From: Paenibacillus faecis
GTDB lineage: Bacteria; Bacillota; Bacilli; Paenibacillales; Paenibacillaceae
DNA length: 64,000 bases
Assembly (NCBI RefSeq): GCF_008084145.1
Contig: NZ_VSDO01000003.1
Coordinates: 558,001-622,000 of the forward strand
Direction: 5' to 3'
The notes under the pieces were generated by a model. It was not told where the DNA came from, made no database searches, and saw nothing but the letters and a program-made list of their open reading frames with translations. Positions 16,175 through 27,011 of the stretch are shown one piece after another; position 1 is the stretch's first letter, and each line of letters starts with the position of its first letter. Position numbers and translations under genes: made by a program.

Positions 16175-16646
16175 GTTCGTGCTCCTATCATTCCGTAATA
16201 GAGTTTGAGCCGTGCTCGTCCCACGCTAAAAAGAGACGGTCCTCCCCCTTGATTCGGGGCCCGCCTCTTGTCGTTTCTTGATGTGGCCATGCTTTGGCCC
16301 CTGGTTAAATATGCCTACTCCCAACTTATTACGGAACGCGGGATTCGTCAAATCGACCAATGCCACCGACCACAGATTCTTTTAAAAGGATCCCCCCACT
16401 CCTCAAATCTCCATAGACTCGCACATAAAAACCATAGAATTACCCCTTTATTTGGCATTAATTCCTGTTTATGATCTCCTTGCGATCCATATCAACCGTA
16501 TGAAAAGGAGGAATGCGGACAAATATGACACCGCTTACATTTTTTTGCCGACAACACCTTAATCGTCAGGAGTAACGGGCTCCACGGACCTGCCGCCAGA
16601 TGTAAAGAACTCGAGGAAACCTTAATATGAAGGGAGATTGAAACTC
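16175..16646. other. Intergenic region upstream of the MazG operon and the GH87-like gene
   Basis: It contains an imperfect hairpin AAGAGACGGTCC/GGCCCGCCTCTT at 16231-16269, which looks like an orphan terminator. A tiny frame at 16525-16572 follows an AAAAGGAGG at 16503-16511, but the spacing is poor and I do not call it. The promoters of the divergent MazG and glucanase genes lie here. Nothing else is supported. Confidence 0.5.
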
Positions 16647-19600
16647 GTGAAAAGCCAAAGACGCGTCGCCGCCTGGATTTGCCTGCTGTCCCTGATCGCA
16701 GGAACGTTCTTCGCCCCCCTCGGATTTCCCTATCCTGCCCATGCCGCGGGAGGGCCGAATCTGGCCGCGGGGAAAACGGCGACGGCCTCCGGCCATGCCG
16801 ATGTTTATGTTGTTTCCAACGTGACGGACGGTAACCCCGAGACGTATTGGGAGAGCACCAATCATGCCTTCCCGCAGTGGGTTCAGGTCGACCTCGGCAG
16901 CGCGGCTCAGATCGACCAAGTCGTACTGAAGCTGCCTTCCGGCTGGGAGAGCCGGTCGCAGACCTTGTCCGTGCAAGGGAGCGCGGACGGCTCGAGCTTC
17001 TCGGACCTCAAAGCCCCGGCCAGCTATACGTTCGATCCGAACGCCGGGAATAAAGTGTCGATCGGCTTTGCCGCAGCCAGCGCTCGTTATGTGAGAATCC
17101 ACGTGACGGCCAATACCGCCTGGCCGGCCGCGCAAGTTTCCGAGCTGGAAGTCTACGGGAACGGCAGCGGCGCCGATAACGAGCCGCCGACCGCTCCGGC
17201 AAACCTGGCCTATACGCAGCCCACCCCGGATACGATCCGCCTCACCTGGGACGCGGCGACCGATAATGTCGGCGTCGCCGGATACGACATTTACGCGAAT
17301 AACCAGCTTCGCGGGAACGTAGATGGATCGACGCTTCAGTATACCGACCCGCAACCGGCCGAAGCAACGGTAACGTATTACGTTGTCGCCAAGGACGCCG
17401 CGGGTAACGCCTCCCAGCCAAGCCAGACCGTCACCCGGACCGGCTCGGGCGGCGACAACGGGACCAACCTGGCCCTCGGCAAGCCGATGACGGCCTCCTC
17501 TTCGACGTTCACCTATGTGGCGGCCAATGCCAACGATAACGATACGAGCACTTATTGGGAAGGAAACGGCCATCCGAGCACCCTCACCGTGGATCTCGGA
17601 GCCAATGCCGACATCACGGCGGTCGTCCTTAAGCTGAATCCGGCCAGCGAATGGGCCACGCGGACGCAGACGATCCAGGTGCTCGGGCACGACCAAAATT
17701 CCACGACATTTGCGAATCTGGTCTCCCCTGCTTCCTATACATTCAACCCGGCTTTGCAAAATACGGTGACGATTCCCGTGAACGCTACGGTGAGCCGCGT
17801 ACAGCTCCGGTTTACGGCCAACTCCGGGGCGCCCGGCGGCCAAGTGGCCGAGTTCCAGGTCATCGGTACAACGGCCCCCAATCCCGACTTGACGGTCACG
17901 AATATTTCCTGGTCGCCGGCTTCCCCGGACGAATCCCACGCCGTTACGCTTAACGCCACCGTCCGGAATAGCGGCTCCGTGGCCTCTACCGCGACGAGCG
18001 TGAATTTCTACCTGGGAGACGCTCGCATCGGGACCGCTTCCGTAGGCGCGCTAGCCGCCAATACCGCGGCGGAGGTCTCCGCGACCCTAGATCCGAAAGA
18101 GGCCGGCTCCTATGCCGTAACCGCCAAAGTGGATGAAGACAATAAAGTCATTGAGAGCAACGAGGCAAACAACAGCTACACTCATCCTTCCCCATTGGTC
18201 ATCGGCCAGGTTCAAAGCTCCGACTTGATCGGAACGGCCTCGTGGACGCCAAGCAATCCCAGCGCGGGCGATACCGTAACCTTCACCGTGAACCTCAAAA
18301 ACCAGGGAACGATCGCTTCCGCCGACGGAGACCACGACATAACGGTTGTGCTGAAAAACGCGGCGGGCTCCACCATTAAATCGTTTACCGGATCCCACAA
18401 CGGCGTTTTGGCGGCGGGAGCGTCGGCCAACGTCACCGTCGGGACGTGGACGGCCGCCAACGGCAGCTACACGGTAACGACGACAGTCGCAGCCGATGCG
18501 AACGAAGTGGTCGCCAAGCGGGCCAACAACGTCAGCACGTCCAGCTTGTATTCCGGGCGGGGCGCCAACATGCCGTTCACCATCCTCGAAGCCGAAGCCC
18601 CGGGGAACGGCACCAACGGGACGAAGCTGGCTCCGAACTTTACGCCGGGCGATTTTGCCGGTGAGGCTTCCGGACGCTCCGCCGTCTATCTGGACGCCGC
18701 CGGAGAATACGTGGAGTTCACGCTGACCTCGCCGGCCAACGCGTTCGTTCTCCGCAACGCCGTGGCCGAGAATACCACCGGTACGGTCAGCATTTACGCG
18801 AACGGCGTAGATAAAGGCAACTTTACCGTGACCTCCAAGTTTTCCTACGTATACGCGACACCTTCGACGCTCGGGCGGCTCGGCTATGACAATTCGGGCT
18901 CCAAGGCCTACTGGCTCTACGAGGATTCGCAGCTGCTGCTGGATCAAGTCTATCCGGCGGGGACCAAAATCCGCATTCAAAAAGATGCCGGAGACGTTCC
19001 CTGGATCTATGTGGATATGATCGAGACCGAAAACGTCGCACCGCCCGCCGCGAATCCGGACCCGGGCAAATATGTCCAGGTTTCGGCCGCCAAATCCATC
19101 GAGCAGGCGCTGAACGAGTTCCGGCAAGATCCGGCCAAGAAGGGGATTTTCATCCCGGCCGGCGAATGGACCCTCCCGTCCAAAATATACCTGTACGGCC
19201 GGGCAACCGAGATCATCGGCGCGGGGCCTTGGCATACCCGACTCGTCGCCCCGAAAGACCAGACGAACACCGATGTCGGATTTAATATCGGCTCCGGCGC
19301 GAACGGTTCAACCATCAAGGATCTGTCCGCCTGGGGCAACTATATCTACCGGCAAGACGGACCCGGCAAGTTCATTGACGGAAACGGCATGCAGAACGTC
19401 ACCATCGAGAACGTCTGGGCCGAACATTTTGTCTGCCTCTATTGGGGAGTGAACTCTTCGCACAATACGTTCAAAAACAACCGGATCAAAAACATGTTTG
19501 CGGACGGCATAAACATGACCAACGGCTCCTCCTACAACATCATCGACAACAACTATGCCCGGGGAACCGGCGACGATTCGTTCGCGTTGTTCAGCGCCAT

Positions 19601-20234
19601 TGATTCGGGCGGCTCCTATAACGTCGGCAACAAGTATACCAACCTCACCGCCACCAATGTCAGACGGGCAGCCGCCTTCGCGGTCTACGGCGGACAAAAC
19701 AACCTGTTCCAGAATCTGTATGGCGCGGATACTCTGACTTATCCGGGCGTCACCATCAGCAGCTTGAGCTTCGGCTACAATACGCTCGGTTTCGGCGACC
19801 AGGATACCGTCATCGATGGCGTCACACTGGATCGCACGGGCGGCGATTTCTGGACCAGTGTCGGCGGCGACGACAAAATCAACGACTACCAGAATTTCGG
19901 GGCCATCTGGTTCCACGGCGGCGACAGGGACTTCAAGAACGTTCTGGTGAAGAACGTCGACATCAATAACCCGGTGTACTTCGGACTGATGTTCCAGTCC
20001 AAGTCTCCGGAGAACCTTCCGATGCAAAATGTCCGCCTGGAGAACATCACGATTAACAACCCGACCCGCTACGGCATTAAACTCGTCGTTAAAGCGGAGG
20101 ACGGCCAAGGCCCGGTTGTCGGCGAAGCGAGCTTTACCAACGTGAAAGTGAACAATCCGGGCATCAGGGCCATCTACGGCGAGGACCGTTCTCCGAATTT
20201 CAACGTTATTCGGGTATCGGGGAATAACTGGTAA
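16647..20234 (+). CDS. Secreted multidomain GH87-like alpha-1,3-glucanase (mycodextranase type)
   Basis: About 1195 residues. A signal peptide ends near AHAAG. In order I see an F5/8-type-C (discoidin) domain (about 38-170), a fibronectin III domain (175-265), a second F5/8 domain (270-410), two CARDB-like repeats (LTVTNISWSPASPDESHAV and IGTASWTPSNPSAGDTV), a CBM6-like domain (about 645-800), and a right-handed beta-helix to the end. In the helix, ADGINM is followed 23 residues later by GTGDD. Asp953, Asp976 and Asp977 reproduce the spacing of the three catalytic Asp I recall for GH87 glucanase Agl-FH1. The frame opens with TTG 16638, but AGGGAG at 16631-16636 better suits GTG 16647. It is exported and probably degrades alpha-1,3-glucan of fungal walls or biofilms. 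A pectate-lyase-like activity is the alternative. Confidence 0.8.
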   Translation: MKSQRRVAAWICLLSLIAGTFFAPLGFPYPAHAAGGPNLAAGKTATASGHADVYVVSNVTDGNPETYWESTNHAFPQWVQVDLGSAAQIDQVVLKLPSGWESRSQTLSVQGSADGSSFSDLKAPASYTFDPNAGNKVSIGFAAASARYVRIHVTANTAWPAAQVSELEVYGNGSGADNEPPTAPANLAYTQPTPDTIRLTWDAATDNVGVAGYDIYANNQLRGNVDGSTLQYTDPQPAEATVTYYVVAKDAAGNASQPSQTVTRTGSGGDNGTNLALGKPMTASSSTFTYVAANANDNDTSTYWEGNGHPSTLTVDLGANADITAVVLKLNPASEWATRTQTIQVLGHDQNSTTFANLVSPASYTFNPALQNTVTIPVNATVSRVQLRFTANSGAPGGQVAEFQVIGTTAPNPDLTVTNISWSPASPDESHAVTLNATVRNSGSVASTATSVNFYLGDARIGTASVGALAANTAAEVSATLDPKEAGSYAVTAKVDEDNKVIESNEANNSYTHPSPLVIGQVQSSDLIGTASWTPSNPSAGDTVTFTVNLKNQGTIASADGDHDITVVLKNAAGSTIKSFTGSHNGVLAAGASANVTVGTWTAANGSYTVTTTVAADANEVVAKRANNVSTSSLYSGRGANMPFTILEAEAPGNGTNGTKLAPNFTPGDFAGEASGRSAVYLDAAGEYVEFTLTSPANAFVLRNAVAENTTGTVSIYANGVDKGNFTVTSKFSYVYATPSTLGRLGYDNSGSKAYWLYEDSQLLLDQVYPAGTKIRIQKDAGDVPWIYVDMIETENVAPPAANPDPGKYVQVSAAKSIEQALNEFRQDPAKKGIFIPAGEWTLPSKIYLYGRATEIIGAGPWHTRLVAPKDQTNTDVGFNIGSGANGSTIKDLSAWGNYIYRQDGPGKFIDGNGMQNVTIENVWAEHFVCLYWGVNSSHNTFKNNRIKNMFADGINMTNGSSYNIIDNNYARGTGDDSFALFSAIDSGGSYNVGNKYTNLTATNVRRAAAFAVYGGQNNLFQNLYGADTLTYPGVTISSLSFGYNTLGFGDQDTVIDGVTLDRTGGDFWTSVGGDDKINDYQNFGAIWFHGGDRDFKNVLVKNVDINNPVYFGLMFQSKSPENLPMQNVRLENITINNPTRYGIKLVVKAEDGQGPVVGEASFTNVKVNNPGIRAIYGEDRSPNFNVIRVSGNNW

Positions 20235-20257
20235 CCCCTGAAATTTCAGCGGCTTAA

Positions 20258-20313
20258 GGAAGGAATGAGCGGTGCAAGAGGGTATCCTCGCGGGTCGCCA
20301 TTCCTTCTTTTCT
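20258..20313 (+). terminator. Terminator after the GH87-like gene
   Basis: GAAGGAATGAGCG pairs with CGCCATTCCTTC, with an inner AGAGG/CCTC stem, and is followed by TTTTCT. It lies about 25 bp after the stop codon. Confidence 0.8.
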
Positions 20314-20342
20314 ATACTCTATATTTATTTCTACCTAAGAAT

Positions 20343-20348
20343 TATAAT
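20343..20348 (+). promoter_or_regulatory. Possible -10 box for the ubiquitin-SLH gene
   Basis: TATAAT lies about 45 bp before the GTG start, in an AT-rich stretch just after the preceding terminator. No convincing -35 hexamer accompanies it. The terminator upstream implies that the gene has its own promoter. Confidence 0.35.
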
Positions 20349-20393
20349 TGAGCATATTACCAAATTATTCTATGGGTAGAGAGGGGAACTTTC

Positions 20394-22961
20394 GTGAGGA
20401 AGCTGGTTGCTTCATTGGCGGTTACGCTTGTTGTCGCGCTGCTTTTTCAGCAGCAGGTGTTTGCCATGGCCATTTACGTTAAGACTTTGACCGGCAAGAC
20501 CATAACCCTGGATGTGGAGCCTTCGGACTCCATAGAAATGGTGAAGCAGCAAATATCCGATAAAGAGGGCATTCCCGTCGACCAGCAGCGGCTGATTTTT
20601 GCCGGGAAGCAGTTGGAGGATGGCCGTACCCTGTCGGACTATAACATTCAAAAGGACTCCACACTGCATCTGGTACTGCGAATCCGCAACGATGCGTCCT
20701 TGAAAAGCCTCGCCATCCATCCGGGAATCCTGGACCCTGTGTTTGTTCCGGCGGTGGAAGCGTACCGGGCCAACGTCCCGTACGATATCCCGTCCATTTC
20801 GGTCTCCGCCGACGCGGCGGATGACACGGCCTCGATCCAAATCAACGGCGGGGCGGACAATCCGGCGGACGTGCCGCTTCAGGTCGGGGATAATTCCGTG
20901 ACGATCACGGTAACCGCGGCGGACAATACCGCGAAAGCCTACACCGTGACGGTAACCAGAGCAGCCCCCGTGCCGATTGACAGTTTAGCCGTGGCGGGCA
21001 CGTCGGCGACCACGGTCGCGTTAAGCTGGGCGGCGGTACCGGGAGCTTCCGGTATGGCGGTCGAGCAGTCCCTTGCAGGGCGGAACGATTGGGCGGCGGC
21101 AACGACGACACCGGCTCCTCTAGCGGCGGATGCGACATCCGCGACGGTGACGGACCTCAGCCCGGATACGGCGTATGACTTCCGGCTGGTCGTCACGGGC
21201 GGCGCCAACGAGGGCCGGTCCAATATCGTCAGCGTTAAGACCGCCGCGCCGGACGTCGACGCGGAGACACCGGCGGTCGTTTCGCAGCCGCTGGACCAGA
21301 CGCTGCGCCTGGGCGCTTCCGCCCGGCCTTTAAGCGTCACCGCCCTCGTATATGACGGCGGAACCCTTAGCTACCAGTGGTACCGGGGCGACAAGAACGA
21401 GACGGCCGGCGGAACCGCGATTGAGGGAGCGGCCGGTTCGTCGTATACGCCGCCGGATAAGACGGTCGGCACCACATACTATTATGCGGTGATTACGAAC
21501 ATGAACCCGGGCGTGACCGGCGTTCAAACCGCATCAGCCACAAGCTCGGCGGCCAAGGTGACGATTCTCCCGGCCACACCGCCGGGCGGTCATGACGGCG
21601 ACGGATCGTCAGGAGGCGGTTCCGGCGGTTCAGTCGTGTTATCCCCACAGACTCCGATAAAACCGGAAGATCCGGCGAAACCGAAGGCCGAGTTCACGTT
21701 TAAAATCAACGGCCAAAGCGCCGATATCGGGTCCGTCTCGCTCACGGAGGTCAATGGGCGTAAGATCGCCAAGGCCGTGTTGGATTCCGGCAAACTGCGT
21801 GAACGACTGGCGGTTGGGGAACAAGCCTCCGCTTCCGTGGCCGTAACGATCACGGTCAATGAAGATGCGGATGCGGTGATCGGCGAAATCAACGGTCAGT
21901 TGGCCGATTTTTTGCAGAAGAAGCAGGCCGTTTTGACGGTGGAGTCCCCCCAAGCGGCATTCACGCTGCCGGTGCGGGAAATCAATCTCGACGGTCTATT
22001 GCGGCAAATGACATCGTCCAGACAGAACCCGACCATGCAGGACCTGGAGATTCAAGTTGAAGTCGCCAAGTCCCCTGCCGATACGACACGATCGTCGGAA
22101 CAGGCGGCAGCGCGTCATGATTCGGAACTGGTTTCGCCTCCCCTGGATTTTGCGGTCCGGGGCGTCCATAAACAAACCGTTGTCGACATCCGGGAATTCG
22201 GTACTTACCTGACCTGGGACATCCCGCTCCCGGGCGGTGAGACGCCTAAGACGACAACCGGCGTGATGCTTGGCTCCGACGGAACGGCCCGCCCCATCGC
22301 GACACGCTTTATGGAGGCGGGGGGCCAAACTTACGCCAGACTGTCGGGCATGGCCACCGACACCTACGCATTGACCCGCCGGCAGCCGGCCGGATTCAGC
22401 GATACGACGCATCATTGGGCCAAGGGAGCCATCGAAAACCTGAGTTCGCGGCTGATCCTTACAGGTGGCGAGTCCGGGCTGTTCCGGCCCAACGACCAGA
22501 TCAGCCGCGCCGAGTTTGCGGTCATGCTCACGCGGGCGTTGGGGCTTCCGCTCAAGGAAGGTACCTCCCTGTTTTCGGATATAAACACGAGCGATGGGTA
22601 CTACAGCGAGGTCAATACGGCGGCGGCCTTCGGCCTGATCGGCGGCTTCGAAGACGGCTCGTTCCGCCCGGCCGACAAGATCACGCGCGAGCAAGCTATG
22701 ACCATGATCGCACAGGCGATGAAGCTGACCGGCCTGGCGGACCGACTTCCCGGTCAATCCGGCGAGCATTCTGCGGCGCTGAGCGCGTTCCCCGATGCCG
22801 CGAACGTGTCCTCTTGGGCGCTTAGCGGCATCCGGGACAGCTTGGCGGCGGGGCTGATCACAGGCCGTGCTGATGGCAGATTGGCGCCGCAGAGCTCTGT
22901 GACCCGAGCCGAGGTCGCCATCATTGTCGAGCGCCTGCTGCAAAAATCAGGACTGATTTAA
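20394..22961 (+). CDS. SLH-anchored surface protein with an N-terminal ubiquitin domain
   Basis: 855 residues. Residues 1-24 form a signal peptide ending VFA, so cleavage would leave Met25 as the new N-terminus. Residues 25-98 are a ubiquitin fold: [23 protein letters not shown] and [20 protein letters not shown] are read directly. By eye 63 of 76 positions match human ubiquitin. Lys6, 11, 27, 33, 48 and 63 and the Leu8-Ile44-Val70 patch are kept; Lys29 is Gln and the terminal Gly-Gly is Asn-Asp, so it cannot be conjugated by the normal route. Then follow a cadherin-like beta-sandwich (about 100-185), a fibronectin III (190-285), an Ig-like domain (290-395), a glycine-rich linker, a Paenibacillus-type beta domain, and three SLH repeats (from about 668), which bind pyruvylated wall polymers. 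GTG start with AGAGGGGAA ahead. The role is unknown: host mimicry, protease decoy or structural reuse. Confidence 0.93.
20466..20687 (+). other. Ubiquitin-coding segment inside the SLH protein gene
   Basis: These bases encode ubiquitin positions Met1 to Arg74, in frame with the signal peptide on one side and the beta-sandwich domains on the other. The differences from human ubiquitin are at positions 2, 4, 16, 22, 25, 28, 29, 31, 38, 64 and 73, mostly conservative (for example E16D, T22S, E64D, L73I), plus 75-76. Base composition is not visibly different from the rest of the gene, which argues against very recent insertion. Confidence 0.93.
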
Positions 22962-22970
22962 TTCATCATG

Positions 22971-22995
22971 GGGCTAACCGTTTATCGGTAGCCCT
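22971..22995 (+). terminator. Terminator after the ubiquitin-SLH gene
   Basis: GGGCTAACCG pairs with CGGTAGCCC around TTTAT, followed by TTTATC. It lies 9 bp past the stop codon. Confidence 0.8.
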
Positions 22996-23150
22996 TTATC
23001 ACTTCTTGCGGGGAGAATTACCTGGAAAAGTTCGTTTATTTGTCGTGGTCGGGTAAGCGTGGCCGAACCTGGGCTGAATTAGCAGTGGAACAGGCTATCG
23101 ATAGGCTCTGTTGGGCTATGGTTGACCATGGCTGGGCCCAGGCAATAGAT

Positions 23151-23338
23151 TTAACGGGAAAACCTCCCGTTAAATAACGCGCAAATGGCCGGGGGCGAGG
23201 ATTACCTGGAAAAAGTCCCGCTAATTTGCCGCAATCGGGCCCGATCGGCCAGAATAGGCTGAATTAGCGGGAGAAAATCCAGCTAATTGGGCGAGACCCT
23301 ACCCATGGGGCAAAATTAACGGGAGGAAATCCTGTTAA
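23151..23338. repeat. 188-bp four-palindrome intergenic element, copy 1
   Basis: Four 23-bp quasi-palindromes of the form TTAnCnGGA-5-TCCnGnTAA start at 23151, 23202, 23264 and 23316, giving spacings 51, 62 and 52. The first and last are approximate inverses of each other, and so are the middle two, so the whole element has dyad symmetry. It is part of the 552-bp tandem array. Confidence 0.88.
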
Positions 23339-23542
23339 TTTGGAAGGACGATACAGAAGGACGACGGGACTGGACAATATTGGCAGCGCACTCAGAAGAT
23401 CGAGGCACTCGGGTGAAGGATTAGTTAGTTGAGTAATATGATCTGCCTGCGGTGTTTAGTTACGGTAGAAGATAGAGGCAAGTTTGAGCTTGGACAGTGT
23501 TTGTCTCGGCGAGGTCCTGGGCCTAACTTTGGGGTCGGACAC

Positions 23543-23669
23543 GGCCATGATTGGGCCATGATTGGGCCATGGTTGGGCCATGGTTGGGCCATGATTGGCC
23601 ATAGTTGGCCATAGTTGGCATGGTTGGCCCCACTTGGGCCATGGTCGGCCATGGTTGCCATGATTGGCC
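23543..23669. repeat. GGCCATG short tandem repeats, block 1
   Basis: About ten runs of GGCCATGRTTGG/GGCCATAGTTGG follow one another with 10-12-bp periods. Apparent open frames here (reading NHGPIMAQSWP-like) are repeat artefacts. Confidence 0.85.
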
Positions 23670-23702
23670 AGAGGTGAGCCCTGCTGAGCCCAGGCAACGG
23701 AT

Positions 23703-23890
23703 TTAACGGGAAAACCTCCCGTTAAATGACGCGCAAATGGCCAGGAGCGAAAATTACCTGGAAAAAGTCCCGCTAATTTGCCGCAATCGGGCCGGATCGG
23801 CCAAACTAGGCTGAATTAGCGGGAGAAAATCCAGCTAATTGGGTGAGACCCTACCCATGGGGCAAAATTAACGGGAGGAAATCCCGTTAA
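23703..23890. repeat. 188-bp four-palindrome intergenic element, copy 2
   Basis: Same layout and length as copy 1. The first unit has arms TTAACGGGA/TCCCGTTAA around AAACC, and the last has TTAACGGGA/TCCCGTTAA around GGAAA. It is nearly identical to copies 1 and 3 because of the tandem duplication. Confidence 0.88.
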
Positions 23891-24094
23891 TTTGGAAGGA
23901 CGATGCGAGAGGACGACGGGACTGGGCAGTATGGGCAGCGCACTCAGAAGATTGAGGCACTCGGGTGAAGGATTAGTTAGTTGAGTAATATGATCTGCCT
24001 GCGGTGTTTAGTTACGGTAGAAGATAGAGGCAAGTTTGAGCTTGGACAGTGTTTGTCTCGGCGAGGGCCTGGGCCTAACCTTGGGGTCGGACAC

Positions 24095-24222
24095 GGCCAT
24101 GATTGGGCCATGGTTGGGTCATGATTGGGCCATGATTGGGCCATGATTGGGCCATAGTTGGCCATAGTTGGCATGGTTGGCCCCACTTGGGCCATGGTCG
24201 GCCATAGTTGCCATGATTGGCC
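24095..24222. repeat. GGCCATG short tandem repeats, block 2
   Basis: This is the second-unit counterpart of the block at 23543, with the GGCCATGATTG motif repeated and a few changed repeat numbers, so the short repeats have varied since the 552-bp duplication. Confidence 0.85.
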
Positions 24223-24255
24223 AGAGGTGGGCCCTGCTGAGCCCAGGCAACGGAT

Positions 24256-24443
24256 TTAACGGGAAAACCTCCCGTTAAATGACGCGCAAATGGCCAGGAG
24301 CGAAAATTACCTGGAAAAAGTCCCGCTAATTTGCCGCAATAGGGTCGAATCGGCCAAAAATGGCTGAATTAGCGGGAGAAAATCCAGCTAATTGGGCGAG
24401 TCCACACCCATAGGGCCAAATTAACGGGAGGAAATCCCGTTAA
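24256..24443. repeat. 188-bp four-palindrome intergenic element, copy 3
   Basis: It starts TTAACGGGA and ends TCCCGTTAA, with length exactly 188 bp like copies 1 and 2. After it the array breaks off near 24515. Confidence 0.88.
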
Positions 24444-24704
24444 TTTGGAAGGACGATGCCGAAAGGACGACGGGACTGGACAACATGGGCAGCGCACTCA
24501 GAAGATCAAGGCACTCAAGGGCCCCCCGTTAATGCCCGGGGTTTTCCCGTTATCCCAACGTTCCGCCCCCCCTCTTCCCCTGCAAAACTGATCCAAAATG
24601 CGCATGACAACTCGTACCGCTTCCCTTAAACTATGAAGTACAAATTGCACACATTTTCCAGTCTCCCTAGCTTACTCACCCCCACTTCTAAAGGAGGAAT
24701 GAAC

Positions 24705-27011
24705 TTGTACAATCCCCGCAAACCCAAGCGCATCCTGATCCTGGGCATTCTTGCGGCAAGCCTGACCGCCCTGCCCTTTTCGGCGGCGGCCGCCGAAGGA
24801 ACCGCCAATCCCACTGTGGAGCTCCGAATTATGGAGACCACCGATCTGCACGTGAACATGGTCAATTATGATTATTTTGCGGATAAGCCTACGGACGAAT
24901 ACGGTTTGGCTAAGACGGCAACGTTGATCAAGCAGGCCCGCACCGAGGCCAAAAACAGTCTGCTCATCGACAACGGCGACCTGATCCAGGGCAACCCGCT
25001 GGGCGATTACGTCGCCACGGTAGAAACGTTGAAAGAAGGCGAAACGCATCCCGTCTTCAAGGCGATGAACCTGTTGGATTACGATGCCGGCAACTTGGGG
25101 AACCACGAGTTCAACTATGGTCTCGATTTTCTGGAGCAATCGCTTGAAGGCTCGGATTTCCCTTACGTGAACGCCAATGTCTACATAGACGACAAAGACG
25201 GGAACCCGGCCAACGACAAAAATGCCTTCACCCCGTACCTGATTCTGGACAAGGAAGTCACCGACAACAGCGGGGCCAAGCATAAACTCAAGGTCGGAAT
25301 CATCGGCTTCGTGCCGCCGCAAATTATGGTGTGGGACAAAGCGAAGCTCGAGGGCAAGGTCGTTGCCAAAGATATTGTGGAGACGGCGGAGAAATTCGTT
25401 CCTCAGATGAAAAAAGAGGGCGCCGACCTGATCATCGCGGTTCCGCATTCGGGCTTTGAAGACATCCCGCAAACCCCGCTAATGGAGAACTCGGTCCTCT
25501 ACCTCAGCAAGGTCAAAGATATCGACGCCATTTTATTCGGGCATGCGCACAAGGTGTTCCCGGATGCTTCCTTTGAGGGTAAGCCCGGCGTTGACCTGAC
25601 CAAGGGCACCATTAACGGCGTGCCCGCCGTGGAGCCCGGATATTGGGGAAATAACCTGGGGATTATCGACATAACCCTGGAGCAAAAAGACGGCAAGTGG
25701 ACGGTGAAAAACTCCGCCGCTGCCGTGAAACCGATCTTCGACAGCGCGAAAAAGCTCCCTTTGGTCGAGGCGGACCAAAGCATCTGGAACGCGGTGAAGA
25801 AAGAGCATGAGGCCACGCTGGAATATGTTCGGGGACCGGTCGGCAAAACGACCGCGCCGATCAACAGCTGGTTTGCCCTGATCCAGGACGATCCGTCCAT
25901 TCAAATTGTGACGAACGCGCAAAAATGGTACGTGGAGCAGCATCTGCAAGGCACCGAATACGAAGGACTTCCCGTTCTTTCCGCGGGGGCCCCGTTTAAA
26001 GCGGGCGGACGCCAAGGCCCGAACTATTACACGGATATTCCGGCCGGCAGCATCGCCATCAAGAACGTCGCCGACCTCTACCTGTACTCCAACACGGTTA
26101 ACGCCGTGCTGGTCACGGGAGCCGAGCTGAAGGAATGGCTGGAATGGTCGGCAGGACAGTTTAATCGGATCGATCCCGCCGGCACACAAGAACAGGCTTT
26201 GGTCAACTACGACTTCCCGACCTATAACTTCGATGTCATCGATGGCGTCACTTATCAGATTGATGTGACACAGCCCGCCAAATACGACGCCAAGGGCGGA
26301 CTGCTGAACGAGAAGGCCAGCCGGATCGTGAATCTGTCCTACGAGGGCAAACCGATTGATCCGGCGCAAAAATTCGTCGTGGCGAGCAACAACTACCGCG
26401 CCTCGTCCAGCAAGTTCGCCAATCCGGACGGCAAACGGATCATTCTCGCTTCGCCGGATGAAAACCGGCAGGTCGTCATCGACTATATCCGCTCGAACGG
26501 CACGATCAACCCGAGCGCCGACGGCAACTGGTCGCTGGCGCCCTTCGGCAGCGCGAACGTGACGTTCGCCACTTCGCCGGCGGCCAAAGACGCTATGGCC
26601 GGTAACGCGTCGCTCGCCGCCAAGCAGAACGAGTTGACGTACCTCGAAACGACCGAGGACGGCTACGCCAAGTTCAAGCTGAGCGTGACGGCCGACGGCA
26701 GCAAGCCGGTGGCCCAGCCGGCGTCGCCGGCGACTCCGCAGCCGAACCCGGCAGAGACGCCGGTGACGACGCCGGAGCAGCCCGCTCCGGAAGCCGCGAA
26801 AGCGGAACCGGCCGCTCCGGCGAACAACCCGGCTCCGACCCAGCCGCCGGGGGCGGCCAAAGAAACGGTCTACGTCGTTAAAAAAGGCGACAACCTGTAC
26901 CGGATCGCCCTCGACCACAACACGACGTGGCGGGAGTTGGCCAAGTACAACAAGTTGGCCAACCCGAAGCTCATCCGTGTCGGGCAGCATATCCTCATTC
27001 CGGCCAAATAA
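24705..27011 (+). CDS. Secreted 2',3'-cyclic-nucleotide phosphodiesterase/3'-nucleotidase with C-terminal LysM domain
   Basis: About 768 residues. A signal peptide (ILILGILAASLTALPFSAAAA) is followed by a calcineurin-like phosphoesterase domain: TTDLHVNM (D-x-H), IDNGDLIQGNP (GD), GNHEFNYG (GNHE), VPHSGFE and FGHAHKVFP (GHxH), all metal ligands. A 5'-nucleotidase C-terminal domain follows (about 370-620, with VLSAGAPFKAGGR). A Pro/Ala-rich linker and a LysM repeat (VYVVKKGDNLYRIALDHNTTWRELAKYN) end the protein and should hold it on peptidoglycan. It is CpdB/YfkN-like and would recycle nucleotides outside the membrane. The frame is open from ATG 24633, but AAAGGAGG at 24690-24697 stands seven bases before TTG 24705; ATG 24699 is too close to it. 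Confidence 0.92.
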   Translation: MYNPRKPKRILILGILAASLTALPFSAAAAEGTANPTVELRIMETTDLHVNMVNYDYFADKPTDEYGLAKTATLIKQARTEAKNSLLIDNGDLIQGNPLGDYVATVETLKEGETHPVFKAMNLLDYDAGNLGNHEFNYGLDFLEQSLEGSDFPYVNANVYIDDKDGNPANDKNAFTPYLILDKEVTDNSGAKHKLKVGIIGFVPPQIMVWDKAKLEGKVVAKDIVETAEKFVPQMKKEGADLIIAVPHSGFEDIPQTPLMENSVLYLSKVKDIDAILFGHAHKVFPDASFEGKPGVDLTKGTINGVPAVEPGYWGNNLGIIDITLEQKDGKWTVKNSAAAVKPIFDSAKKLPLVEADQSIWNAVKKEHEATLEYVRGPVGKTTAPINSWFALIQDDPSIQIVTNAQKWYVEQHLQGTEYEGLPVLSAGAPFKAGGRQGPNYYTDIPAGSIAIKNVADLYLYSNTVNAVLVTGAELKEWLEWSAGQFNRIDPAGTQEQALVNYDFPTYNFDVIDGVTYQIDVTQPAKYDAKGGLLNEKASRIVNLSYEGKPIDPAQKFVVASNNYRASSSKFANPDGKRIILASPDENRQVVIDYIRSNGTINPSADGNWSLAPFGSANVTFATSPAAKDAMAGNASLAAKQNELTYLETTEDGYAKFKLSVTADGSKPVAQPASPATPQPNPAETPVTTPEQPAPEAAKAEPAAPANNPAPTQPPGAAKETVYVVKKGDNLYRIALDHNTTWRELAKYNKLANPKLIRVGQHILIPAK

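What the first reader, a model, noticed from the sequence alone, without database searches (positions are those of the whole stretch)
20394..22961. Secreted, SLH-anchored bacterial protein displaying a near-authentic eukaryotic ubiquitin
The sequence shows a signal peptide ending VFA directly before ubiquitin Met1. It is followed by 74 residues of which 63 of the 76 ubiquitin positions match the human protein (counted by eye; only conservative changes and loss of Gly75-Gly76), then beta-sandwich domains and three SLH repeats. Six of seven ubiquitin lysines and the Leu8-Ile44-Val70 patch are kept. Without Gly-Gly it cannot be activated by E1, and no E1, E2, E3 or deubiquitinase gene lies nearby. 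A cell-surface ubiquitin could bind ubiquitin-recognising host or protist proteins, or act as a decoy. Bacteroides fragilis secretes a free ubiquitin, but I know of no described S-layer-anchored fusion. This is the best candidate for an undescribed system in the window.
Basis: partly seen in the sequence, partly recalled or inferred. Interest (0 to 1): 0.96.

Follow-up and report, generated by a model that had tools for sequence, protein, structure and literature searches.

The report
Ubiquitin displayed on bacterial cell surfaces
A bacterium of the Paenibacillus family codes for an exported, wall-anchored protein whose outer end is a nearly authentic copy of ubiquitin, the tag protein of complex cells, and similar genes with other surface anchors are scattered through other bacterial groups.

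Summary
The ORF at 20394-22961 encodes a signal peptide, then ubiquitin starting exactly at Met1 (63 of 74 residues as in human), cadherin-like and fn3-like domains, and three SLH repeats. It is not an artefact: two congeneric genomes hold full-length orthologues (about 51% identical; ubiquitin 74%). I counted 73 signal-peptide-plus-ubiquitin genes, 20 of them in named strains of five phyla, with unrelated modules behind the ubiquitin: autotransporter barrels, SLH, dockerin, T9SS tails, IPTL-CTERM, or nothing. In 11 of 12 disjoint pairs of related genes the ubiquitin changes more slowly than the rest. Gly75-Gly76 is absent in 67 of 73, and no E2 was found in 27 carrier genomes (no positive control). 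Best reading: a non-conjugable ubiquitin shown on the cell surface as a non-covalent ligand for a protein of another organism. The partner is unknown. The Ile44 patch is not specially conserved across the class, which weakens the simple 'eukaryotic receptor' version. The closest precedent is BfUbb, a secreted toxin of Bacteroides fragilis. No anchored version was found in the open-licence papers searched.

The parts
20394..22961 (+). gene for the surface protein, 855 aa, GTG start
   Evidence: orthologues L086, L087
20380..20386 (+). AGAGGGG, ribosome-binding-site-like, 7 bases before the GTG
   Evidence: read
20394..20465 (+). signal peptide, 24 aa, ends VFA
   Evidence: my hydrophobic-stretch heuristic; no SignalP run
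20466..20687 (+). ubiquitin residues 1-74, no Gly75-Gly76
20700..20960 (+). cadherin-like beta-sandwich domain (residues 103-189)
   Evidence: PF12733, 69.6 bits
20985..21242 (+). fn3-like domain (residues 198-283), below Pfam cut-offs
   Evidence: PF00041 22.5 bits and PF16656 24.1 bits
22395..22958 (+). three SLH repeats (roughly residues 668-855; outer limits by eye), wall anchor
   Evidence: PF00395 in three stretches, 127 bits, best 727-768
22970..22995 (+). terminator-like hairpin just after the stop codon
   Evidence: -15.5 kcal/mol, z -4.4; the simple terminator scan did not list it
20256..20310 (+). hairpin followed by a T-rich stretch between the upstream gene and this gene; with the one above it suggests a one-gene transcript
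   Evidence: -28.8 kcal/mol, z -2.8; not listed

Best explanation
The protein is exported by Sec, cut by signal peptidase exactly before Met1 and held on the cell wall by its SLH repeats, so that a native-like folded ubiquitin stands free at the outer end of a beta-domain stalk. Lacking Gly-Gly it cannot be conjugated, nor cut off by deubiquitinases (established knowledge of ubiquitin). It works as a non-covalent protein ligand, that is a bait, decoy or adhesin tip, for a protein of another organism, more likely a eukaryotic neighbour (fungus, protist or plant) than another bacterium. It is one of a scattered, cross-phylum class in which the same signal-peptide-plus-ubiquitin head is joined to the surface anchor that the lineage uses. 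Shown from sequence: the architecture, the class, stronger purifying selection on ubiquitin, the loss of the conjugation tail. Inferred: actual surface exposure and the ligand role. Guess: which partner.
For: Same head in 73 genes; Met1 in 73 of 73 and a signal-peptidase-like -3/-1 pair in 67 of 73. Of 70 scanned, at E <= 0.01: autotransporter barrel 19, SLH 12, dockerin 7, T9SS tail 3, IPTL-CTERM 3 (overlaps not checked). Ubiquitin dN below that of the rest in 11 of 12 disjoint related pairs, 15 of all 16 pairs computed. In the autotransporter cluster 32 of 33 listed pairs are 83-97% identical in ubiquitin and 23-45% in the rest. In the window's orthologues ubiquitin is the most conserved part: 74% against 43-47% cadherin-like, 56-63% fn3-like, 52% SLH. 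Conservation drops after the fold ends: R72 0.84, L73 0.52, R74 0.48, G75 0.29, G76 0.12. Ubiquitin GC3 follows locus GC, r = 0.88, n = 73, rows not independent. E2 in 0 of 27 carrier genomes, no positive control. In 17 sequences (window plus 16 from HMM searches) the exposed loop 60-66 is nearly fixed: N60 16, Q62 17, K63 16, E64 15, S65 16, T66 17 of 17.
Against: No partner was identified; in 72 loci with 559 neighbour ORFs no neighbour family is shared by more than 5 loci, and the one shared by 5 lies inside the autotransporter cluster. The Ile44 patch changes more per site than other surface in 11 partly overlapping bacterial pairs: 0.336 against 0.221. One pair (L100-L102) has faster ubiquitin than rest. 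Some bacterial ubiquitin domains are not at the N-terminus: G007 (L004/L088), where L8, I44, H68, V70 and the loop Q62-E64 are all replaced, L121, and two Pseudoalteromonas plasmid proteins at 50-54% identity. Six of 73 keep Gly75-Gly76. Surface exposure is judged from domain content alone. The 80 loci were the best of 236, so conservation in the set of 73 is inflated.
Confidence: 0.55

Rival explanations
1. It is a contact-dependent weapon against related bacteria, an anchored version of BfUbb: the displayed ubiquitin binds an envelope protein of a competitor, such as a peptidyl-prolyl isomerase, and stops its growth.
For: BfUbb is a signal-peptide ubiquitin without Gly-Gly whose synthetic 76-aa form inhibits other B. 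fragilis strains (13 of 40) and seems to need no immunity gene. A later paper, seen only as one citing sentence, ties sensitivity to Tyr119 of a peptidyl-prolyl isomerase. Dyella (L026, L032) and L082 encode a bare secreted ubiquitin like BfUbb. No neighbour that could be a shared immunity gene recurs across the class.
Against: Bovine ubiquitin (identical to human), which these proteins resemble more than BfUbb does, had no activity on the BfUbb-sensitive strains. Most members carry more behind the ubiquitin and many an anchor, so are not freely released. Bacterial antagonists tend to diversify (recalled), while these stay close to eukaryotic ubiquitin.
Confidence: 0.2
2. Ubiquitin is only a very stable, protease-resistant, quickly folding cap at the free end of surface proteins, kept for its fold and not for binding.
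For: Core residues are the best conserved class (0.902). The Ile44 patch is not special. The downstream parts are often unrelated, as expected of a generic cap. The fold ends where conservation ends.
Against: Exposed residues that the fold does not need (Q62, K63, S65, N60, K33; judged from recalled ubiquitin-like proteins) are nearly fixed. Overall identity is far higher than the fold requires (recalled). Three members carry nothing behind the ubiquitin to cap (L026, L032, L082).
Confidence: 0.2
3. Assembly artefact, contamination or recent one-off transfer from a eukaryote.
For: Some MAG contigs do look eukaryotic (no signal peptide, intact Gly-Gly, tandem ubiquitins: for example L024, L025, L040).
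Against: Bacterial signal peptide and SLH in one frame, two congeneric orthologues with different neighbours, GC3 near that of the rest of the gene (window 0.67 ubiquitin, 0.74 rest), 19 named strains plus one plasmid record.
Confidence: 0.02

Closest known systems
BfUbb of Bacteroides fragilis (PMC3352274, PMC5705921)
   Same: Signal peptide cut exactly before ubiquitin Met1, no Gly-Gly, sporadic among strains, presumed transfer from a eukaryote or its virus.
   Different: BfUbb is a free 76-residue protein, 63% identical to human, with a C-terminal Cys. The window protein is 85% identical to human over 74 residues and is one end of an 855-residue SLH-anchored protein without that Cys.
SLH-domain surface proteins (PF00395)
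   Same: Signal peptide, beta-sandwich stalk, three C-terminal SLH repeats.
   Different: The N-terminal head is ubiquitin.
Secreted ubiquitin effectors of plant-parasitic nematodes (as described in the discussion of PMC5705921)
   Same: Signal peptide plus ubiquitin, secreted towards another organism.
   Different: [quoted passage not shown] here no Gly-Gly and a wall anchor.
Extracellular ubiquitin of mammals (review PMC10892293, passages)
   Same: Ubiquitin reported to act outside cells; residues 1-74 are said to bind CXCR4 without activating it.
   Different: Released host protein; its CXCR4 action is contested; antimicrobial at micromolar doses. Not a bacterial surface protein.

Membership tests
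Ubiquitin proper (PF00240) | ubiquitin sequence and beta-grasp fold | tested here: met
   63 of 74 identical to human; 100 bits; TM 0.99 to 1ubq
Ubiquitin proper (PF00240) | C-terminal Gly-Gly for activation and conjugation | tested here: not met
   residues 72-78 read RIRNDAS; the protein continues 757 residues after residue 74
Ubiquitin proper (PF00240) | conjugation enzymes in the same cell | tested here: inconclusive
   E2 model matched 0 of 27 carrier genomes, but no control genome rang; E1, E3 and deubiquitinases not searched
Secreted bacterial ubiquitin (BfUbb type) | signal peptide abutting Met1 | tested here: met
   (own heuristic, no SignalP)
Secreted bacterial ubiquitin (BfUbb type) | no Gly-Gly | tested here: met
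Secreted bacterial ubiquitin (BfUbb type) | free single-domain product ending in Cys | tested here: not met
   855 aa with SLH repeats, ends KSGLI
Secreted bacterial ubiquitin (BfUbb type) | inhibits related strains | not testable with these tools
   -
SLH surface protein | signal peptide and three SLH repeats | tested here: met
SLH surface protein | binding to a wall polymer | not testable with these tools
Rad23 shuttle protein (NCBIfam TIGR00601) | score over the curated cut-off | tested here: not met
   47.2 bits against 207.3, residues 25-238

The most novel reading that the evidence does not exclude
Surface-displayed ubiquitin is an unrecognised, cross-phylum class of bacterial extracellular ligands: bacteria have placed a non-conjugable eukaryotic ubiquitin on their outer surface, each lineage with its own anchor, to engage ubiquitin-binding proteins of fungi, protists or plants. 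Ubiquitin would then serve as an inter-kingdom recognition signal outside cells, read partly through the N60-T66 loop and not through Ile44 alone.
Probability: 0.35. Interest if true: 0.96.

Novelty: new variant of a known kind. Interest (0 to 1): 0.88.

Why it matters
Ubiquitin is taught as the intracellular hallmark of eukaryotes, and in the papers searched I met one secreted bacterial copy, BfUbb. Here near-authentic ubiquitin is coded behind signal peptides and in front of unrelated surface modules in named strains of Bacillota, Pseudomonadota, Actinomycetota, Planctomycetota and Bacteroidota, and in MAGs of others, under strong purifying selection while the conjugation tail decays. If display is confirmed, ubiquitin has a second, extracellular and non-covalent career in bacteria, and there are many tractable strains in which to look for the partner.

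Tried and rejected
Phylogeny of the ubiquitin domain: 90 rows, 72 columns, 2 of 86 inner branches starred, eukaryotic rows interspersed. One or many acquisitions cannot be told.

A conserved partner gene: 72 loci, 559 neighbour ORFs, some loci cut by contig ends; the only family shared by 5 loci lies inside the autotransporter cluster, with no Pfam match for the one member scanned and no PDB match for the five-member profile. None of 27 other window ORFs was found beside the orthologues in L086 (13 kb) and L087 (9 kb), so the neighbourhoods differ.

Phage or virus origin: no match in 50,697 phage records; 6 loci in IMG/VR, of which two (L110, L113) show a signal-peptide-like stretch before ubiquitin. 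Not pursued.

Ile44 patch as the conserved face: tested and not supported for the class. The classes of core and patch residues used there are recalled, not computed from a structure.

Full-length fold: ubiquitin (block means 81-93) and most of the SLH part (block means 51-89, last block 33) were modelled; the rest was poor; mean pLDDT 51 with 5 sequences. The middle stays unassigned.

Rfam 19500-25500: nothing at gathering scores.

Rows dropped: A1 holds 70 of the 73 signal-peptide rows (L007, L057_1 and L070 left out by me). Seven of 73 have under 60 residues behind the ubiquitin and were not compared. Of 20 genomes with strong matches, leaving out the window's genome and the chosen centres, 17 have signal peptide plus ubiquitin; not L004 and L121 (internal) nor L129 (no signal peptide, frame leaves the ubiquitin match). 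One search used 16 of those 17 (L117, whose frame ends at residue 68, left out) plus the window. Weak matches G084, G123, G284, G685 and G1095 were not counted as ubiquitin.

Full report
What is there. The ORF at 20394-22961 on the + strand encodes a 24-residue signal peptide, ubiquitin residues 1-74 starting exactly after the likely cut site, a cadherin-like domain, an fn3-like domain below Pfam's cut-off, an unassigned middle and three SLH repeats. Against human ubiquitin there are 11 differences in 74 residues. The model of the domain superposes on 1ubq with TM 0.99. A ribosome-binding-site-like stretch lies 7 bases before the GTG, and hairpins on both sides suggest a one-gene transcript, although the simple terminator scan did not list them. 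PF00240 matches once in the genome. The family of the genome is Paenibacillaceae: two members of its family group have their match at the same contig and bases as Cohnella sp. OV330 and Saccharibacillus sacchari DSM 19268.

Not an artefact. Two of the 39 other genomes searched in the genus hold full-length orthologues, about 51% identical over 859 columns; a third (G007) holds a diverged ubiquitin inside a BspA-repeat, cadherin-like and SLH protein. None of 27 other window ORFs is found near the two orthologues, so the gene does not travel with its present neighbours. Third-position GC of the ubiquitin part follows the GC of its locus across 73 genes, r = 0.88 (rows not independent), so synonymous sites have taken on host composition.

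A cross-phylum class. A scan of genome contigs gave 236 relatives, of which the best 80 were kept. With one plasmid record and genomes from HMM searches I counted 73 genes, the window's included, in which a hydrophobic signal peptide, called by my own heuristic, is followed by ubiquitin at Met1. Residue -1 is A, G or S in 71 of 73 and the -3/-1 pair is of signal-peptidase type, by my definition, in 67 of 73. Gly75-Gly76 is kept in 6 of 73. Of 20 loci whose titles name a strain (MAGs, single cells and uncultured entries set aside), 19 have the signal peptide: 11 Pseudomonadota, 4 Bacillota, 2 Actinomycetota, 1 Planctomycetota, 1 Bacteroidota; the one without is Cellulomonas algicola (L058). Ruminococcus albus 7 adds one on a plasmid. 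What follows the ubiquitin differs: 37 groups by BLAST among the 73, seven of them single proteins with under 60 residues to compare. Of 70 scanned, 19 match the autotransporter barrel, 12 SLH, 7 dockerin, 3 the T9SS tail and 3 IPTL-CTERM at E <= 0.01; NCBIfam agrees on the last two. Three (L026, L032, L082) are bare secreted ubiquitins, two of which end in Gly-Gly.

How common. PF00240 at E <= 0.001: genus 4 of 40 and family 8 of 197, both counting the window's genome; Bacillota 5 of 398, counting it, two strong; phylum of Dyella 2 of 398, one being the chosen centre and the other weak; family of Ruminococcus albus 8, 9 of 197 with the centre and one weak; phylum of Carboxylicivirga 4 of 296 with the centre; phylum of Conexibacter 2 of 296 with the centre. 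It is rare and scattered.

Selection. In 12 disjoint pairs with alignable remainders the ubiquitin has lower dN than the rest in 11; the exception is L100-L102; dS is saturated or undefined in several. In a 10-member autotransporter cluster, 32 of 33 listed pairs are 23-45% identical outside ubiquitin and 83-97% inside it; the other is the near-identical pair L017-L020. The members are labelled Pseudomonadota, Verrucomicrobiota, Chlorobiota and Cyanobacteriota, mostly MAGs, and L017's cyanobacterial label is doubtful because it is 93% identical to a Methylophilaceae contig. Many of these alignments start within 13 residues of the ubiquitin, so the fusion is ancestral in those. In the window's orthologues the ubiquitin is the best kept part. 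Conservation falls off after residue 72: what is kept is the folded domain, not the conjugation tail. No E2 was found in 27 carrier genomes, without a positive control.

Which surface. The set of 73 is inflated because one search kept the best 80 of 236, so I also used 17 sequences (window plus 16 from HMM searches). There the core is 0.902 like human, the D58 face 0.859, the F4 face 0.835, the Ile44 patch 0.788, other surface 0.776, the Ile36 patch 0.676. In the exposed loop N60, Q62, K63, E64, S65, T66 are kept in 15-17 of 17; the internal ubiquitin of G007, not in that set, has lost Q62-E64. In 11 partly overlapping bacterial pairs the Ile44 patch changes more per site than other surface. 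Within the window trio it is kept apart from R72K in L087. The residue classes are recalled.

Mechanism. Display on the surface is inferred from the anchors; that it is the shared purpose is inferred from unrelated anchors behind the same head. Conservation of exposed residues, with free synonymous turnover and loss of Gly-Gly, points to a non-covalent binding role. A eukaryotic partner is my first choice because the sequence stays near the eukaryotic one, because several named carriers live with plants, marine animals or rumen protozoa (recalled), and because the gene next door here is an alpha-1,3-glucanase, an enzyme against a polymer of fungal walls among others (recalled). BfUbb shows that a secreted bacterial ubiquitin can be a toxin for bacteria, with a peptidyl-prolyl isomerase involved (one sentence in PMC12396204; the Nature Microbiology paper itself was not seen). 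Bovine ubiquitin was inactive there. Mammalian extracellular ubiquitin is reported to bind CXCR4, which some contest, and to be antimicrobial at micromolar doses (passages of PMC10892293).

Literature. Searches, over open-licence PMC papers only, listed no paper that I recognised as describing an anchored bacterial ubiquitin; the listings were capped. PMC5705921 was read in abstract, discussion and one results section; PMC3352274, PMC4378268, PMC11354881, PMC3482391, PMC1949818, PMC12396204, PMC12853789 and PMC10892293 in passages only.

Noticed in passing
window 16638-20234: Upstream neighbour is an alpha-1,3-glucanase with a signal-peptide-like start, two F5/8C and two CARDB stretches.
   Followed up: partly
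window about 23020-24560: Non-coding stretch with long near-identical units repeated about every 550 bases, two of them with an array of GGCCATGATTG-like 10-11-mers; no Rfam match.
   Followed up: no
L078:4747-5748, L030:4765-5754, L017:200-1186, L020:3609-4595, L035:7207-8202: A family of about 330 aa beside the ubiquitin-autotransporter gene in 5 loci; no Pfam match for the one member scanned and no PDB match for the five-member profile; its LINHS stretch recalls SET-domain methyltransferases (recalled, untested).
   Followed up: partly
L033:5293-6684, L055:5286-6684, L080:197-1572: Actinomycetota-labelled MAG contigs with two tandem genes of ubiquitin plus a ~150-aa part ending in FTG, no signal peptide called, no Pfam match for that part in the three proteins scanned.
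   Followed up: no
L109, L112: IMG/VR contigs coding for tandem, diverged ubiquitins joined by short Gly-rich linkers.
   Followed up: no
L088:5325-9236: Congeneric BspA-repeat SLH protein with an internal ubiquitin whose Ile44 patch is replaced.
   Followed up: partly
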